Assembly: GCF_943736985.1 (NCBI RefSeq)
Contig: NZ_CALSFS010000001.1
Span: 620,001 to 684,000 of the forward strand
Reading direction: 5' to 3'
Source: Clostridium sp. Marseille-Q2269
Lineage (GTDB): Bacteria > Bacillota > Clostridia > Clostridiales > Clostridiaceae
DNA: 64,000 nt
A program made the translations under genes and the position numbers. Under the pieces are notes generated by a model that saw nothing but the letters and a program-made list of their open reading frames with translations, was not told where the DNA came from and did no database searches. Below are positions 2,107-41,729 of the stretch, one piece after another (the stretch's first letter is position 1; every line of letters begins with the position of its first letter).

Positions 2107-3138
2107 TTAATTGGAATTATAAATTAAAATACTTTTAGAAAAATCCACTGTAAAATATATCTTTTGTCCTATACTTAATAAATTGTTATTATAATCTGTT
2201 ACTTTTACATTTTTATCTTTATATTTTATAGTATAATAGATTCTATCTCCAGCATATTGGGAAGATATTATTTCTCCCATATGACTTTTAGGTATTGAAT
2301 CTGCATGTATTTTTATATTTTCTGGATTTATCATTAATTCTAGGTCACCTTGTTTTTCAGTTTTCACTTCTATTTCTCCCAGATCACAATAAAATCTATT
2401 TTTAACAACTCTACCTTTAAAATAATTTCTTTCTCCAAAAAAATTAGCTGCTTTTTTACAATTAGGTCTTTCATATATTTCCTTTGGAGTGCCATACTGA
2501 ATTATTTTCCCATCTAGCATTAAAGCTATATTGTGAGCCATCATTAAAGCTTCTTCTTTATCATGAGTAACTAATATGGTGGTTATTTCTAATTGCTTTT
2601 GTATTTTTAATACCAAATCTCTTATGGAGTTTTTGATATTAATATCTAAACTGGTAAAAGGTTCATCTAAAAGTAAAACTTTAGGTTCTATTGCAAGTGC
2701 TCTTCCTATAGCTACTCTTTGTTTTTGTCCCCCTGATAGCTCTTTGGGATATTTATTTTCTAATCCCTCTAAACTTTACATTTTTAATATATTATTTACT
2801 TTTTCTTTTATTGTGTTCTTATTTTCTTTTCTCATATTAAGTCCAAAAGCTATATTTTTATATACATTTATATGAGGAAATAACATATATTCTTGAAATA
2901 ATATTACAATTTCTCTTTTTTCCACTGGTGTATTTTTTATATTTTTACCACTTATTAAAATTTCTCCACCATCTTCTTGTAATAATCCTGCTATTATATT
3001 TAATGTAGTACTTTTGCCACAACCTGATGGTCCTAAAAGACACATTAGTTCTCCCTTTTCTACAGAAAAATTTATATCATCCAATACGGTTTTGTTATTA
3101 AATATTTTCTTTATTCCTTTTACTTCTATTTCTTTCAT
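2107..3138 (-). pseudogene. ABC transporter ATPase interrupted by an in-frame stop
   Basis: A reading frame of 344 codons encodes a full nucleotide-binding subunit apart from one internal TAA at 2776-2778. Before the stop lie the Walker A motif GPSGCGKST and the Q-loop (FQEYMLFPH). After it, in the same frame, come the signature LSGGQ, Walker B LLLDEPFTSLD, the H-loop VTHD and a C-terminal TOBE-like regulatory domain. No frameshift is needed: a single base substitution explains the break. A downstream TTG at 2616 could start a 169-residue piece, but it would lack Walker A. It is the last gene of the importer cluster, 12 bp after the permease. It is either a pseudogene, a sequencing error or a recoded stop. 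Confidence 0.85.
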
Positions 3139-4849: not shown

Positions 4850-6088
4850 TTATTTATCTCCTGGTATATTTTCTTGCCATATTTTTTCTATAATAGGTAC
4901 TAATTCAGCTGGTAATTCTGGCAATCTATGTGGCAATAACTGACTTTGTGGAAGTGATCCAGAACCAACTTTTATTTTTTCTATTTCTTTCTTTTCACCT
5001 TCACTTAATTTTTTATTATCAAATACAGGTAAATCTCCCCATACTTTAGGATCATACTTAGATTTTTGCATTTCGAAACTTAATATATCATTGATAGTAA
5101 CCATTGCCCCTTCTTTATTAGGAGCATTAAATGGTATTGCTACAAAATGTGTATTTCCTATAGTACCATTTTTAAATACTGAAACTTGTGTTTTTTTAGG
5201 GAAAGTTCCATTATCTATTTTCTCTGTTACTGAATTTGGATTATAGCTCATAGTATTTATAATCTGTTTATCTGCATACATATTATCTAGCATAGCTATG
5301 TTAGCTGGATAAGTTTTTCCTTTATTCCAAAGATAAGGCTTTATTTGTTTTAAGTAATCTATAGCTGGTTTTATTTCTTTTTCTACAAGAGCCTTTTCTG
5401 GTTTTATTTTCATAAGCTTTTCATAGCCCACTATATCATATATTATATTTCTAACAAATGCACTTCCTGTAAAATCCGGTGGTGCAGCATATGTGAATTT
5501 TCCTGGATTAGCCTTTACAAATTCTAAAAGTTCCTTATGATCTTTGGGAACTTTTGTTACTTTTTCTTCATCATATACCATAACAAATTGTGCTTTCCCA
5601 TAAGGAGCTTCAAATGCTTCTACTGGTTTTCCGAAATCATATTTTACATCATTTGAATCCTTATCTATGTATTTTTTATAATTAGGAATATTATCTACAA
5701 ATGGTCCATATAAAAGATTATTTTTCTTTGCTGTATAAAAGTTTTCACCATTTATCCAAACTACATCAATATTCCCTTTATCTTTTGCCGCTTGTTTTTC
5801 TCCAAGCATTTTATTCAATATGTCATCAATCTCCATAGGTACTCTTTTTAATGTTATATTATACTTTTGTTTTAAGTCTTTAGCTAAATAATTATCTATC
5901 CATTTGTTCGTAAGTTCACTACCACCCCATCCATAAAATGTTACAGTAGTTCCTTTACTTTTCTCTACTATAGAATTCCAATCTTTAGTATTGGATTCTG
6001 TACTATTTTCACTTTTTTGTTTATTACCACAACCTACTAAAGAGAAAACCATTGCAAAAGTAACTAAAAAACTCATAATTTTTTTCAT
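4850..6088 (-). CDS. YnjB-like ABC substrate-binding lipoprotein
   Basis: A 412-residue extracytoplasmic binding protein. The signal peptide ends in a lipobox LVGC, making Cys20 the probable lipid-modified N-terminus. The mature protein carries GWGGSELTNKWID, characteristic of the YnjB-type (COG4134) binding proteins, a family related to iron, thiamine and polyamine binders with unproven ligands. The start at 6088 was chosen for its strong AAGGAGG site at 6095-6101; a longer in-frame start at 6127 has no such signal. It is the first gene of the cluster and is preceded by an extended -10 promoter. Because the ATPase is broken, transport by this system may be lost unless another ATPase serves it. 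Confidence 0.85.
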   Translation of the reverse strand: MKKIMSFLVTFAMVFSLVGCGNKQKSENSTESNTKDWNSIVEKSKGTTVTFYGWGGSELTNKWIDNYLAKDLKQKYNITLKRVPMEIDDILNKMLGEKQAAKDKGNIDVVWINGENFYTAKKNNLLYGPFVDNIPNYKKYIDKDSNDVKYDFGKPVEAFEAPYGKAQFVMVYDEEKVTKVPKDHKELLEFVKANPGKFTYAAPPDFTGSAFVRNIIYDIVGYEKLMKIKPEKALVEKEIKPAIDYLKQIKPYLWNKGKTYPANIAMLDNMYADKQIINTMSYNPNSVTEKIDNGTFPKKTQVSVFKNGTIGNTHFVAIPFNAPNKEGAMVTINDILSFEMQKSKYDPKVWGDLPVFDNKKLSEGEKKEIEKIKVGSGSLPQSQLLPHRLPELPAELVPIIEKIWQENIPGDK

Positions 6089-6127
6089 TTTTATCCTCCT
6101 TAATACGAAAATTTTATACCAACACAC

Positions 6128-6136: not shown

Positions 6137-6443
6137 TATTTAACCCTATATTCCCATATTTTCGACTATTTAAATAAACTACCTAAAAATAAATTTAGTG
6201 AAATAAACCTTATAATTTTTTAAATAAAATATCTTTTAACTGTATTTTATATTTGTATTATTAAATTATTTTTAAGCATTTCCTTTTAAAAAATCTTTAT
6301 AATCTTTTATATAATAATTATCTACAAATTACTCTATATTTTATAAATATATATATTCTTTTATGATTAGGCTTTAAGATAACCTACGTATCACACTATG
6401 GTTAATTATTTTTTTACAATAAAGAACATGTAATAATTTACTT

Positions 6444-6472
6444 TTGACAAAATTGTCTGAATATTATATAAT
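6444..6472 (+). promoter_or_regulatory. Perfect consensus sigma-A promoter for an orphan RNA
   Basis: TTGACA at 6444-6449, a 17-bp spacer and TATAAT at 6467-6472 match the sigma-A consensus at all twelve positions. It points into the gene-free stretch that follows, predicting a start near 6479. Nothing on the plus strand downstream encodes a normal-size protein before the terminator at 6828-6862. Confidence 0.8.
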
Positions 6473-6478
6473 TTAATC

Positions 6479-6865
6479 ATAATAAATTATATAATACAAG
6501 GTGAGGTGATACCACCATATATTTAATTAACAGTTTCTTTATCACTAAAGTAGATTCTAAACTGGATATATAAATTAATGGTGAATCTTCTAACCCATAT
6601 ACAAGGTACCTTAATAACTAACTAGTTATTGGGACTTTAGTAAAATTTATTATATAAATTTTTTAGTAAGGATAGATTCTGAATCAAAATTATTTTAAAT
6701 TTGGTTACAGAATATTCTTTACTAAACATTCTCTCTAAATTTAATGATTAATTATAAAAGAAAGGCAGGTAGAAAAGTTCAAATAATGCAATTAGATGAA
6801 GATTTATTTGTTTTAGAATCTACTTAATAGCTGATTTAAATTAATATAATTTAAATCAGCTATTT
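6479..6865 (+). ncRNA. Candidate structured RNA of about 385 nt, family not recognised
   Basis: This gene-free stretch is bounded by a perfect promoter and a strong terminator. Its ends can pair: AAGTAGATTCTAAA (6548-6561) is the exact complement of 6812-6825. Inside are a 7-bp hairpin (6613-6630), an AT hairpin (6643-6661) and a stem of about 18 pairs with one bulge (6662-6681 with 6708-6726). I see no hallmark of tmRNA, RNase P, SRP RNA, T-box or common riboswitches. A 27-codon ORF (6744-6827) without a ribosome site overlaps the 3' part; its tail (KVQIMQLDEDLFVLEST) faintly recalls NUMOD motifs of homing endonucleases, so a decayed mobile intron is an alternative. From 6128 to 6440 I see only the promoter of the preceding operon. 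Confidence 0.55.
6828..6862 (+). terminator. Terminator of the orphan RNA
   Basis: TAGCTGATTTAAATT (6828-6842) pairs perfectly over 15 bp with 6848-6862 around a 5-nt loop, followed on the plus strand by TTTACTTTT. It may also stop transcripts of the convergent DUF2971 gene. Confidence 0.7.
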
Positions 6866-6879
6866 ACTTTTATGAATTC

Positions 6880-7857
6880 TTAGTATCTTAGAGGTATTTT
6901 AGATTTGTTTATAATTATTTTAAAATATCCTTCGCTTTCTAAAAAAGATCTTAATCCCATCTCTGCAATATCTAAATTATTTTTAGGACCTATAGTTACT
7001 TTTTCTATAGGTAAATTTCCTCCTTCAGCATTAGAGTTAAGCCTTAACTCTATATATGGAATAAAAACTCTATTTGAAATTCTATGCTTTACTATCTGTT
7101 TTTTTATATCTTTATTTATAATTCTAAATACTAATCTATGTTCCTTCTCTTCTTTAAAACTCTCATCTTTAAAGAAAGTAGCTATATAAGCTATATTGTT
7201 TATCATATATATTATTAATGATTTAAAGTCCTTATCTGCTTTATGATCATAAAAACTTTCATATAACTTATATAAGAATTCAACTCTTTCTTTTATTATG
7301 TTTTGCTGATGTTTCTTATTATATATAACTTCTCCAAAATACCATACAAAATCTTCTCCTTCATTTAAAAAAATAGATTTTTCGTTTTTATCTATAAATC
7401 TATATTTTTTTTCTTTAAATATATTTTGAAAATAATCATAATTGAATCCTAAATTATACCCGTCATAATTAGAATAATTAGACCAAAGAGCTAAAGAATC
7501 TGTATTTTCTGTAAGAGATAGTATATAGGTATCTCTCAATTCTATATCTATAGTATTTAATAAAATATCCATATTTTGTTTGAATAATTCATCAAATTCC
7601 TTTTCCCCATTTAAACATCCATTGCATATTTCATAAATTAAATTATTAGTATAATCTATTTCTGTACTGTCATTAAGATATTTACTGTTAGATAGCCAAA
7701 TATTTTCTTTGCTTATTATATTTTCTAAAGTACTTATGCTAGTATAATAATATAATTTATTTATATTTTTACATTGATATAAATCTAATTCATATCTAAA
7801 TATATTTTCTTTGTTTTTAAATTTATTTATATATGTATCTATAACAGGCTTATTCAT
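6880..7857 (-). CDS. DUF2971 family protein
   Basis: A 325-residue soluble protein of the DUF2971 family. Recognisable parts are the N-terminal YYYTSISTLENIISKENIWL with WLSNSKYLNDSTEID, the central block SLTENTDSLALWSNYS followed by GYNLGF, and a C-terminal EEKEHRLVFR with IEKVTIGPKNN. DUF2971 proteins are common near phage-defence and mobile genes, but their function is not established. Here the gene stands alone, preceded by its own short leader and convergent to the orphan RNA. No transmembrane segment is seen. Confidence 0.75.
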   Translation of the reverse strand: MNKPVIDTYINKFKNKENIFRYELDLYQCKNINKLYYYTSISTLENIISKENIWLSNSKYLNDSTEIDYTNNLIYEICNGCLNGEKEFDELFKQNMDILLNTIDIELRDTYILSLTENTDSLALWSNYSNYDGYNLGFNYDYFQNIFKEKKYRFIDKNEKSIFLNEGEDFVWYFGEVIYNKKHQQNIIKERVEFLYKLYESFYDHKADKDFKSLIIYMINNIAYIATFFKDESFKEEKEHRLVFRIINKDIKKQIVKHRISNRVFIPYIELRLNSNAEGGNLPIEKVTIGPKNNLDIAEMGLRSFLESEGYFKIIINKSKIPLRY

Positions 7858-11062: not shown

Positions 11063-12481
11063 ATGGAAGCATTTATGAATCTTATTAATTCAATTTCCAA
11101 CTGGATATGGGGACCACCTATGCTAATATTATTAGTAGGTGGAGGAATTATTTTAACCTTTAAATTAAATTTTTTTCAAATAATATATTTTCCTTATATA
11201 ATGAAAGAAACTTTTGGTAAAATGTTCAGTAAACCTGCTGAAGGTGAAGGTACTATTACTCCCTTTCAAGCTGCCTGCTCAGCATTAGCATCCACTGTAG
11301 GGGCTGCTAATATTATAGGAGTTCCTGTTGCTATAGCCTTTGGAGGCCCTGGTGCTGTTTTCTGGATGTGGATAGTTGCAATTTTAGGACAGGCAACTAA
11401 ATTTTCTGAAATAATTCTTGGTATAAAATATAGAGAGAAAAATGAAGAAGGAAACTATGTAGGAGGACCTGTATACTACTTAAAAAAAGGATTGAAATCA
11501 CCTACTATTGCTAAAGTACTTGCTACAATGTGTTCTTTCTGCTTTATGCTGGAAATAATACCATCTATCTCTACACAATCACTATCAGTTTGTCAAACTG
11601 CTGAAACTATAGGATTACCTAAAATAGTTACTGCTATAATTGTAACCGTTTTAGTAGCCCTAGTTGTTTACGGTGGTATTCAAAGAATAGGCCAAGTAAC
11701 TGAAAAAATGGTTCCTATAATGGCTTTAATATTTATTATTTGTTCAATAATAATATTATTATTTAATATTACAAAATTACCACATGCTTTTTTATTAATA
11801 TTTAAAGGTGCCTTTACACCTCAAGCTGCTGTAGGTGGTTTTGGTGGTGCTACACTTGCTCAAGCTCTAAGATGGGGTACTGCTAGAGGTACTTATTCAA
11901 ATGAAGCTGGTATGGGAAGTGCTCCTATAGCCCATTCTGCTGCAGTTACAGATCATCCCGTTCGTCAAGCATTCTGGGGTATATTTGAGATAATGGTAGA
12001 TACAATAATAATTTGTACTTTGACAGCTCTTGTAGTTATAACTACAGGAATGTGGAATACTGTTCCAGGCTCTGAAGCTGCTTCTATGCCTTCAATGGCC
12101 TTTCAATATGTATTTGGGAAAGTTTTTGGTGGTGCCATAGTTTCAATAAGCTTATTGCTATTTGTTTTATCTACTATTATAGTTATAGTTTACTATTGTG
12201 AAAAACAAGCTGAAGCTTTATTTGGACTTACATTTTCAAAGATAATAAGAGTAGTTTGTCTAGCAGCCATAATATACGGAGCTGTTGGTCAATTAGAATT
12301 TTTGTTCTCATTACTTGATTTTCTGCTAGCTCTAGTTGTTATACCAAATATGATTGGTATAATAGCCATGAGAAATGAAGTAAAAGAATTAAAAGAAAAG
12401 TTTTTCTCAAATCCAAAATATTACCCACCAGCAGGTAAGAAAATAAATAACAAAAGTATTGAAAACTCTGCTGATCTATAA
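11063..12481 (+). CDS. Alanine or glycine:cation symporter (AGCS family)
   Basis: A 472-residue polytopic membrane protein importing alanine or glycine with sodium. The family block around residues 79-103 contains VGAANIIGVPVAIAFGGPGA then FWMW, and a second block contains WGTARGTYSNEAGMGSAPIAH, both typical of AGCS. About eleven helices. The site AGGAGG lies 6 nt before the ATG. It is monocistronic, with its own promoter and a very strong terminator. In clostridia such carriers feed amino-acid fermentation. Confidence 0.92.
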   Translation: MEAFMNLINSISNWIWGPPMLILLVGGGIILTFKLNFFQIIYFPYIMKETFGKMFSKPAEGEGTITPFQAACSALASTVGAANIIGVPVAIAFGGPGAVFWMWIVAILGQATKFSEIILGIKYREKNEEGNYVGGPVYYLKKGLKSPTIAKVLATMCSFCFMLEIIPSISTQSLSVCQTAETIGLPKIVTAIIVTVLVALVVYGGIQRIGQVTEKMVPIMALIFIICSIIILLFNITKLPHAFLLIFKGAFTPQAAVGGFGGATLAQALRWGTARGTYSNEAGMGSAPIAHSAAVTDHPVRQAFWGIFEIMVDTIIICTLTALVVITTGMWNTVPGSEAASMPSMAFQYVFGKVFGGAIVSISLLLFVLSTIIVIVYYCEKQAEALFGLTFSKIIRVVCLAAIIYGAVGQLEFLFSLLDFLLALVVIPNMIGIIAMRNEVKELKEKFFSNPKYYPPAGKKINNKSIENSADL

Positions 12482-23705: not shown

Positions 23706-23845
23706 AAGCTAGAGAAAAATCTCTAGCTTTAATAAGCGAAATTCTCTCATCTTCCAGTTAAATCTGCAGGATTTAGCACCATGTATAAAAATATACTGGT
23801 TGCCGGGTTTCATAGGGCCAGTCCCTCCACCGCTCTTGATAAGAA
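23706..23845 (-). promoter_or_regulatory. SAM-I (S-box) riboswitch with terminator, controlling metNIQ
   Basis: On the minus strand the aptamer (23845 to 23744) shows the S-box landmarks: CTTATCAAGAG, GGTGGAGGGACTGGCCC, TGAAACCCGGCAACC, GGTGCTAAATCC and the closing GATGAGAG. It is followed by a perfect 10-bp terminator hairpin (23706-23715 with 23720-23729) and a T run. High S-adenosylmethionine should end transcription before metN. The remaining leader to metN (23499-23705) contains no gene, and 23846-23998 holds only spacer and promoter sequence. Confidence 0.96.
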
Positions 23846-30053: not shown

Positions 30054-30395
30054 AAAAATCCCTCTCTGACAAAACAGAGACGGATTATCCGCGGTACCAC
30101 TCTAGTTGACTCAATAGATACTCAATCATATCTAATATTTAATATAAAGTAAAATTTACTTTATATTAAATATGGTATATTAACACCATTAAGTCCTCTT
30201 AAAACTTTAACGCAGTTAACGACTTACTTTTGGAATATAGTATCTATTATATGTGTATATTCCTTTCTTGGTAAGCTTCTCTGAGACTCTCTTCCTCTTT
30301 AATTAAGTTACAGGCTTACAACTACCCTGCTCGCTTTAAACCTCATAAAAAGTACTCTTCTCTTCACTGAATATAAATATTCTACTTTCAAAATT
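30054..30395 (-). promoter_or_regulatory. T-box leader of argS
   Basis: On the minus strand the antiterminator bulge sequence AGAGTGGTACCGCGG (T-box core TGGTACCGCG, 30087-30103) is followed by a terminator stem (AATCCGTCTCTG with CAGAGAGGGATT) and a run of seven T residues. Upstream lies a long structured region that would contain Stem I. An AGA triplet in the segment GTCTCAGAGAAGC is a possible arginine specifier codon, but I could not place the specifier loop with certainty. Confidence 0.92.
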
Positions 30396-41098: not shown

Positions 41099-41195
41099 TG
41101 TATGTTTATTAAAACTATTAAGTAGTTAATTTACTTTAAATATTTTGATAAAAACTATAAGGAAATTACGACTTAACACCTTTTAAAGCATAAAA

Positions 41196-41417
41196 ATTAA
41201 AACAGGGAATACTTTTAGTCAATAGATGGCTATAAAAATAAAGAATACTAATATTTGTATCTTAAGATTTAAGCTAACGGCCTAATGCCACGTCCTGTGG
41301 CAACTAGTCCTAAGTAAACGTCCTGTTTACTTTACTCTTAAATCTTAGTTTACAAATAAAGTATTATAATTATTTTTCTAGATATCTATTTTTCCTAAAA
41401 GTATTCCTTGTTTTAAT
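41196..41417. repeat. 222-bp nested palindromic element with ACAGGACGT hairpin loops
   Basis: Terminal inverted repeats of 23 bp (41196-41218 and 41395-41417) agree at 22 positions. Inside, a second pairing (41263-41273 with 41337-41347, 11 bp) encloses two small hairpins, 41286-41302 and 41312-41332, each with the loop GTCCT on the plus strand, that is AGGAC on the minus strand. The whole could fold into one branched cruciform or RNA. No ORF is present. It resembles a MITE-like element; as a minus-strand RNA it would display five GGA motifs. The rest of 41099-41954 also holds no gene. Confidence 0.65.
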
Positions 41418-41729
41418 CCATTTAAAGACTGTTATATAAATATTTTAAATTTAAATATAAAACAATTGGCGTAGTCAGGAAATTGATCATACGAATTTTT
41501 ATTGCTAACGCATAAATATTTAGTATAGAAATTAACATATGTAAATTTTATGAATGATATACTTACTCCCCATGCTACGCATGAATTTTCTAACTAAAAT
41601 TTTTTTAAAGCCCTTTCTTTTAATGAAAAAATGATTACAGATTTTACGTAAAAATCATCTTTTAGTACTTCCTCTTACATAGAAAATTACGTTTAAATAG
41701 TTTAATATCTTCCTTTAGGTTAAAAAATT

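What the first reader, a model, noticed from the sequence alone, without database searches (positions are those of the whole stretch)
6444..6865. Orphan transcription unit with a perfect promoter, long-range pairing and a terminator but no gene
Seen directly: TTGACA-17-TATAAT at 6444-6472, a perfect 15-bp terminator at 6828-6862, and between them a 14-bp exact pairing that joins the two ends (6548-6561 with 6812-6825), an internal stem of about 18 pairs (6662-6681 with 6708-6726) and two smaller hairpins. There is no downstream gene on that strand, so it is not a leader. I recognise no known RNA family. TAGATTCT occurs twice and could allow alternative folds. The 27-codon ORF at the 3' end may be a small peptide or a scrap of a homing endonuclease; in that case the RNA could be a decayed self-splicing intron.
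Basis: partly seen in the sequence, partly recalled or inferred. Interest (0 to 1): 0.72.

Follow-up and report, generated by a model that had tools for sequence, protein, structure and literature searches.

The report
Orphan small RNA gene, no relatives
A stretch between two bacterial genes has its own start and stop signals and can fold on itself end to end, so it is probably the gene of a small regulatory RNA; such RNAs are common, and no relative was found that could prove it or tell its job.

Summary
The anatomy is real. A perfect TTGACA-17-TATAAT promoter (6444-6472), a perfect 18-bp hairpin with a T-rich tail (6826-6864), a 14-bp exact pairing of the two ends (6548-6561/6812-6825; reached in 1 of 600 shuffles) and two well-supported internal hairpins lie on the plus strand, and no convincing plus-strand gene follows before 11063. 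The most likely reading is an intergenic small RNA of about 385 nt, restricted to its lineage. It can take two folds of nearly equal energy that exclude each other, open or closed by the 14-bp stem. Action in trans is inferred, not shown. In anatomy it resembles VR-RNA of C. perfringens (386 nt, ends predicted to pair, a small ORF that was not the active part). The VirR half-box is absent and sequence relation was not tested, so it is not filed as a member. No homologue was found by DNA or by a single-sequence covariance model in 206 related genomes, nor by DNA in plasmids or phages, so covariation could not be tested. Rfam gives nothing credible, no intron included. Results that weaken it: 13 of 106 other intergenic windows fold as well or better, and the 27-codon ORF has gene-like codon use, so a decayed gene stays open. 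A Crp/Fnr pseudogene was tested and rejected.

The parts
6444..6472 (+). Perfect sigma-A/sigma-70 type promoter TTGACA-17-TATAAT; predicted start near 6480
   Evidence: 12 of 12 matches; two perfect ones in the window against about 0.3 expected
6480..6866 (+). Predicted transcript of about 385 nt
   Evidence: promoter and terminator; fold z -6.96, -3.79 for 6480-6825. Transcription itself not shown
6503..6510 (+). GAGGTGAT, Shine-Dalgarno-like, overlapping a small hairpin (GGTG-ATAC-CACC, 6505-6516), with no ATG, GTG or TTG start at the usual distance behind it
   Evidence: 4 copies of GAGGTGAT in the window on both strands
6548..6561 (+). 5' arm of the 14-bp end-to-end pairing
   Evidence: 1 of 600 shuffles
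6600..6642 (+). Hairpin 1
   Evidence: mean pair probabilities 0.73-0.97 over its four helices
6662..6726 (+). Hairpin 2, 24 pairs in three helices, holds the second TAGATTCT
   Evidence: mean pair probabilities 0.92-0.97; 6595-6730 z -5.32
6744..6827 (+). 27-codon ORF with gene-like codon use but no ribosome-binding site
   Evidence: no Pfam or NCBIfam match
6812..6825 (+). 3' arm of the 14-bp pairing; can also pair partly with 6673-6688
   Evidence: I6, I7
6826..6864 (+). Intrinsic-terminator-like hairpin, 18 perfect pairs, 3-nt loop, T-rich tail

Best explanation
The unit is the gene of an intergenic small RNA of about 385 nt, restricted to its lineage as far as could be searched. Shown in the sequence: a perfect promoter, a hairpin terminator, no following gene on the strand, and a better fold on this strand than on the other. 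Inferred: the RNA is made, folds its 5' domain first, and once the 3' arm is transcribed can switch to a closed form in which the 14-bp stem joins the ends and rearranges that 5' domain. It would act in trans on mRNAs or proteins unknown here, as VR-RNA acts on many genes by an unknown mechanism. Whether the 27-codon ORF is translated is unknown; it lacks a ribosome-binding site.
For: Perfect promoter and terminator-like hairpin about 355 nt apart. The only other perfect promoter in the window lies just before a real structured RNA, the argS T-box leader. The 14-bp pairing is rare by chance, 1 of 600 shuffles. Five of the seven helices of the two hairpins have mean pair probability above 0.9. 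The plus strand of 6480-6825 folds better than the minus strand: z -3.79, 0 of 200 shuffles, against -2.11, 8 of 200. No credible Rfam match. Absence of relatives is not unusual: passages of PMC3649979 say that only few C. difficile sRNA genes were found in another clostridial species, and its Table 2 lists putative coding sequences in 48 of 94 intergenic sRNAs.
Against: No expression data and no homologue, so no covariation. 13 of 106 other intergenic windows fold as well or better against their shuffles; some hold known RNAs. The 14-bp stem is not in the minimum-energy fold. The last 27 codons score like real coding sequence (8.8 against a coding median of 9.1; intergenic 99th percentile 8.6), which fits a gene remnant as well. 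No convincing target: the best of 41 translation starts of the window reached -6.9 kcal/mol, a value reached by 2% of the pairs with shuffled RNA, not corrected for 41 trials. The same passages of PMC3649979 note an earlier in silico study that called about half of predicted clostridial intergenic sRNAs conserved among most species, which would make a lack of relatives less normal.
Confidence: 0.5

Rival explanations
1. Remnant of a decayed protein gene: promoter, Shine-Dalgarno sequence (6503-6510) and terminator of a former gene remain, most of the frame has been lost, and the 27 codons at 6744-6827 are its last piece; the folds are then partly incidental.
For: Gene-like codon use in the last 27 codons; a Shine-Dalgarno-like octamer near the predicted start without a start codon behind it; stop of the ORF directly before the terminator.
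Against: Elsewhere in the unit no frame comes near the coding median: the best are 3.1-3.7 on the minus strand at 6521-6655, above the coding 5th percentile (2.7) but below the intergenic 95th (6.0). No Pfam or NCBIfam match for the ORF. A Crp/Fnr origin, suggested by a weak match, was rejected. A remnant does not predict the rare 14-bp pairing.
Confidence: 0.2
2. Messenger for a small peptide: the 27 codons, or another short frame, are the product and the RNA is its regulated mRNA.
For: Codon use of the 27 codons; putative coding sequences are frequent in clostridial sRNAs (passages of PMC3649979).
Against: No ribosome-binding site before 6744, about 264 nt of leader, and no match of the peptide at E<=0.001: 5 of 200 genomes match at E<=1, best 0.22, to a protein that looks like a GGDEF protein by eye; nothing in phages or plasmids.
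Confidence: 0.1
3. No dedicated RNA: promoter-like and hairpin sequences arose or persist by chance in AT-rich DNA, and the hairpin serves the convergent DUF2971 gene.
For: About 0.3 perfect promoters expected per window; looser promoter-like sites at the expected number; fold energy within the range of other intergenic windows; DUF2971 ends at 6880 on the other strand.
Against: Perfect promoter, terminator and a rare pairing coincide on one strand; the T-rich tail of the hairpin is on the plus side, not on the DUF2971 side.
Confidence: 0.12
4. Small non-autonomous mobile element of 278 bp with 14-bp terminal inverted repeats and a scrap of transposase at its right end.
For: Perfect 14-bp inverted repeat at 6548/6825 with an ORF ending by the right arm; a possible 3-bp direct repeat TAA outside 13-bp arms. 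Among 325 held records 4 others, all viral pieces fetched because they hold one arm, have a partner arm with at most 1 mismatch within 2.5 kb, one of them (L152) 272 bp away against 262 here.
Against: No second copy in the window; no match in 206 genomes, and only short chance matches in plasmids and phages; a 3-bp duplication is weak; the viral pairs are about what chance gives in pieces picked for one arm (judgement, not computed); the ORF matches no Pfam transposase.
Confidence: 0.06
5. Decayed self-splicing intron with a scrap of homing endonuclease.
For: Only an eye-level likeness of the ORF to endonuclease modules (recalled).
Against: No intron family at E up to 5; no endonuclease domain.
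Confidence: 0.02

Closest known systems
VR-RNA of Clostridium perfringens (gene vrr, formerly hyp7)
   Same: 386 nt from start to probable terminator, 5' and 3' ends predicted to pair, holds an ORF (hyp7) that is not the active part (passages of PMC4963840); here about 385 nt, ends can pair, small ORF.
   Different: VR-RNA is controlled by VirR through a two-part motif; in 6201-6480 the best match to one half-box, typed from recall, had 5 mismatches of 11. Sequence relation not tested: VR-RNA was not fetched.
Intergenic sRNAs of clostridia (C. difficile, C. acetobutylicum sets)
   Same: Between genes, sigma-A promoters for part of them, Rho-independent terminators, few with homologues found in other clostridia in the C. 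difficile set (passages of PMC3649979 and PMC3879012).
   Different: This one has an unusual end-to-end pairing; its expression is not shown.
RNAIII of Staphylococcus aureus
   Same: Recalled only: long structured regulatory RNA with a small ORF of similar length.
   Different: Recalled: 514 nt, agr-controlled, ORF translated. No such family appears in the Rfam scan here.

Membership tests
Intergenic (trans-acting) small RNA | Own promoter and terminator, no gene behind it on the strand | tested here: met
   sequence signals only
Intergenic (trans-acting) small RNA | Transcript exists | not testable with these tools
   no RNA-seq available
Intergenic (trans-acting) small RNA | Conserved structure with compensatory changes | tested here: inconclusive
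   no homologue to compare: 0 of 206 genomes; no genome of the host held, closest of 206 at 77% in ArgS
Intergenic (trans-acting) small RNA | Base-pairs with target mRNAs | tested here: inconclusive
   41 translation starts of the window only; best -6.9 kcal/mol, reached by 2% of pairs with shuffled RNA, uncorrected
VR-RNA | VirR binding motif in the promoter | tested here: not met
   one half-box, pattern typed from recall; best site has 5 mismatches of 11 in 6201-6480
VR-RNA | Length about 386 nt and ends able to pair | tested here: met
   predicted ends and pairing only; description of VR-RNA
VR-RNA | Sequence homology | not tested
   VR-RNA sequence not fetched
Group I/II intron or HNH-associated RNA | Match to the Rfam covariance models | tested here: not met
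   none at E up to 5 in 6400-6900
Retron ncRNA | Reverse transcriptase gene adjacent | tested here: not met
   neighbouring proteins scanned: SBP_bac_8, DUF2971, TPR
Riboswitch/T-box or other leader | Gene downstream on the same strand; Rfam match | tested here: not met
Crp/Fnr regulator pseudogene | Pieces match a Crp/Fnr profile | tested here: not met
   profile of 106 proteins; best piece 2.8 bits, on the minus strand; best plus-strand piece 0.7 bits at the wrong end of the profile; the 27-codon piece not listed at E up to 1000
Miniature transposable element | Further copies; target duplication | tested here: not met
   no further copy in the window or match in 206 genomes; 3-bp repeat at best

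The most novel reading that the evidence does not exclude
A dual-function RNA of a hitherto undescribed family: a two-state switch in which a 14-bp end-to-end stem, with two competing TAGATTCT partners, opens or closes the 5' domain that hides a Shine-Dalgarno-like site, with a 27-residue peptide read from the same RNA; a counterpart of VR-RNA/RNAIII in another lineage.
Probability: 0.1. Interest if true: 0.55.

Novelty: new member of a known kind. Interest (0 to 1): 0.27.

Why it matters
If real it adds a large, possibly two-state regulatory RNA to the clostridia, and the structure is specific enough to be tested by transcript mapping and by comparison once close relatives are at hand. If it is a gene remnant it matters little.

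Tried and rejected
Crp/Fnr pseudogene: a weak match of the 27-codon ORF to a Crp/Fnr C-terminus (L210, E 0.41; named by eye) suggested it. A profile of 106 Crp/Fnr proteins taken from 108 loci (L210, L214-L320) gave no support for any piece. Homing endonuclease scrap or intron: no model. Retron: no reverse transcriptase among the neighbouring proteins scanned. Mobile element: see rivals. VirR control: no half-box. A system made of DUF2971 plus this RNA: the arrangement of ORFs around 17 DUF2971 loci of relatives differs from locus to locus (coordinates only were compared), and the covariance model finds nothing beyond chance in 32 loci, these 17 among them (best E 0.77). DNA matches at E down to 1.9e-6 (41 of 58 genomes at E<=0.1) and at E<=0.01 in 12 of 14 genomes are all short (at most about 70 nt) and scattered over the query; I treat them as chance. 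Plasmid and phage matches (12 records each, best E 0.1 and 0.04) are likewise short. The pattern AAGGTGAGGTGATACCACC has no match in viral contigs. Tandem repeats: none in the unit.

Limits: only 3 candidates per genome were scored in the 20 rows shown, and 16 in those; no genome is known to match, so these blanks are weak. The covariance model rests on one sequence. The intergenic windows had 40 shuffles each, overlap, and in short gaps run into flanking sequence.

Full report
What is there. The plus strand of 6444-6866 carries a perfect TTGACA-17-TATAAT promoter, an 18-bp perfect hairpin with a T-rich tail at 6826-6864, a 14-bp exact pairing 6548-6561/6812-6825 and two well-supported hairpins, 6600-6642 and 6662-6726. 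The flanking genes are an ABC transporter binding protein (4850-6127, minus, SBP_bac_8) and a DUF2971 protein (6880-7857, minus). The next convincing plus-strand gene starts at 11063, so nothing is led by this RNA.

Is it more than chance? Perfect promoters: 2 in the window on both strands, about 0.3 expected from composition; looser promoter-like sites near the unit are at the chance number, 18 against 19.5. The other perfect one stands before the argS T-box leader, a real structured RNA (30073-30376 minus, 88.4 bits, E 6e-20, just under the gathering score of 93). The 14-bp pairing was reached in 1 of 600 shuffles with a gap of at least 100 nt and in 0 of 600 with a gap of at least 200 nt. 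Fold z-scores are -6.96 with the terminator and, without it, -3.79 (6480-6825), -4.57 (6548-6825) and -5.32 (6595-6730); the opposite strand of 6480-6825 gives -2.11. Against this, 13 of 106 other intergenic windows of the same size (53 overlapping places, two strands, some holding known RNAs) score -3.79 or lower. The fold alone is therefore no proof.

Two folds. The free minimum is -90.4 kcal/mol and does not contain the 14-bp stem; with the stem enforced the energy is -89.2. The stem has mean pair probability 0.39. In the open fold its 5' arm lies in a 5' domain that also involves the Shine-Dalgarno-like GAGGTGAT (6503-6510); in the closed fold this domain is rearranged. The 3' arm can also pair partly with the second TAGATTCT copy (6673-6688, 88%). 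That this is a working switch is inference.

Relatives. No whole genome is held for the window. The closest of 206 genomes of one family is 77% identical in ArgS, so the host is unidentified and no near relative is available; that it is a clostridium is inferred from the title of L001 (a Clostridiaceae bacterium MAG) and from gene content. DNA searches: 0 of 206 genomes at E<=1e-5; 12 of 14 of the closest or binding-protein-bearing genomes at E<=0.01, but only with pieces of 20-70 nt scattered over the query; 41 of 58 genomes of the order of another genome at E<=0.1, again short pieces. A covariance model of 6595-6730 built from this one sequence: 0 of 206 genomes at E<=0.1, although it finds its own source at 154.9 bits. 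Plasmids and phages: 12 records each, only short matches, best E 0.1 and 0.04. Rfam: nothing in the unit at gathering and only animal or plant RNA names with scores far under their gathering scores at permissive thresholds. The gathering scan of the whole window missed a TwoAYGGAY RNA that a local scan finds above its gathering score, so the permissive local scans are the ones to trust. Covariation therefore could not be tested at all.

The ORF. Codons 6744-6827 score 8.8 on a window-trained codon model, near the coding median (9.1) and above the 99th percentile of intergenic windows (8.6, best of three frames); 17 overlapping windows in six frames were tested here, so this is mild evidence. 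Elsewhere in the unit the best scores are 3.1-3.7 on the minus strand, within the low tail of coding and inside the intergenic range. The ORF has no ribosome-binding site. It matches no Pfam or NCBIfam family, one PHROG of unknown function at E 0.15, no PDB chain, and nothing in phages or plasmids by tblastn. In 200 genomes 5 match at E<=1, best 0.22. One weak match to a Crp/Fnr C-terminus led me to test that family with 106 proteins; no piece matched.

Interpretation. The simplest account is an intergenic regulatory RNA restricted to its lineage. Passages of PMC3649979 state that only few C. difficile sRNA genes were found in another clostridial species and list putative coding sequences in 48 of 94 intergenic sRNAs, so orphan status and a small ORF are not odd; the same passages cite an earlier in silico study that found about half of predicted clostridial intergenic sRNAs conserved. 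Passages of PMC3879012 speak of 159 sRNAs in C. acetobutylicum. The closest in anatomy is VR-RNA of C. perfringens: 386 nt, ends predicted to pair, an ORF that is not the active part (passages of PMC4963840). One half of the VirR motif was looked for and is absent here and sequence homology was not tested, so this is likeness, not membership. A decayed gene is the main rival; a small-peptide mRNA, chance, and a small mobile element are less likely; a decayed intron is disfavoured. I rate the sRNA reading at 0.5 and the find as an ordinary though well-formed candidate. No search for this sequence in print was possible; the paper searches were for context only.

Noticed in passing
window 30073-30376 (-): T-box leader before argS, 88.4 bits, just under Rfam's gathering score of 93 and so not listed by the whole-window scan; the second perfect promoter of the window (30432, minus) lies before it.
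   Followed up: yes
window 41195-41420: Very strong long hairpin (fold z -10.2 for 41100-41460) behind a gene that looks like an MBL-fold protein (named by eye); TwoAYGGAY RNA on the minus strand at 41227-41381 (50.5 bits, gathering 43) and a sub-threshold Bacillaceae-1 match on the plus strand at 41269-41329 (26.9 bits, gathering 35).
   Followed up: partly
window 2107-3138 (-): The ABC ATPase gene of the binding-protein operon appears as two ORFs (2776-3138 and 2107-2616): broken, or a sequencing error; described only.
   Followed up: no
window 6880-7857 (-): DUF2971 protein with relatives in 15 of 206 related genomes at E<=1e-10 and a match to PHROG 1762 (E 2.9e-20); the arrangement of neighbouring ORFs differs between 17 loci.
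   Followed up: partly
window 23744-23845 (-): SAM riboswitch (87.9 bits) upstream of what looks by eye like a metNIQ methionine transporter operon.
   Followed up: no
window 6462-6496: A perfect 14-bp inverted repeat (6462-6475/6483-6496) spans the -10 box and the predicted start: possible operator.
   Followed up: no
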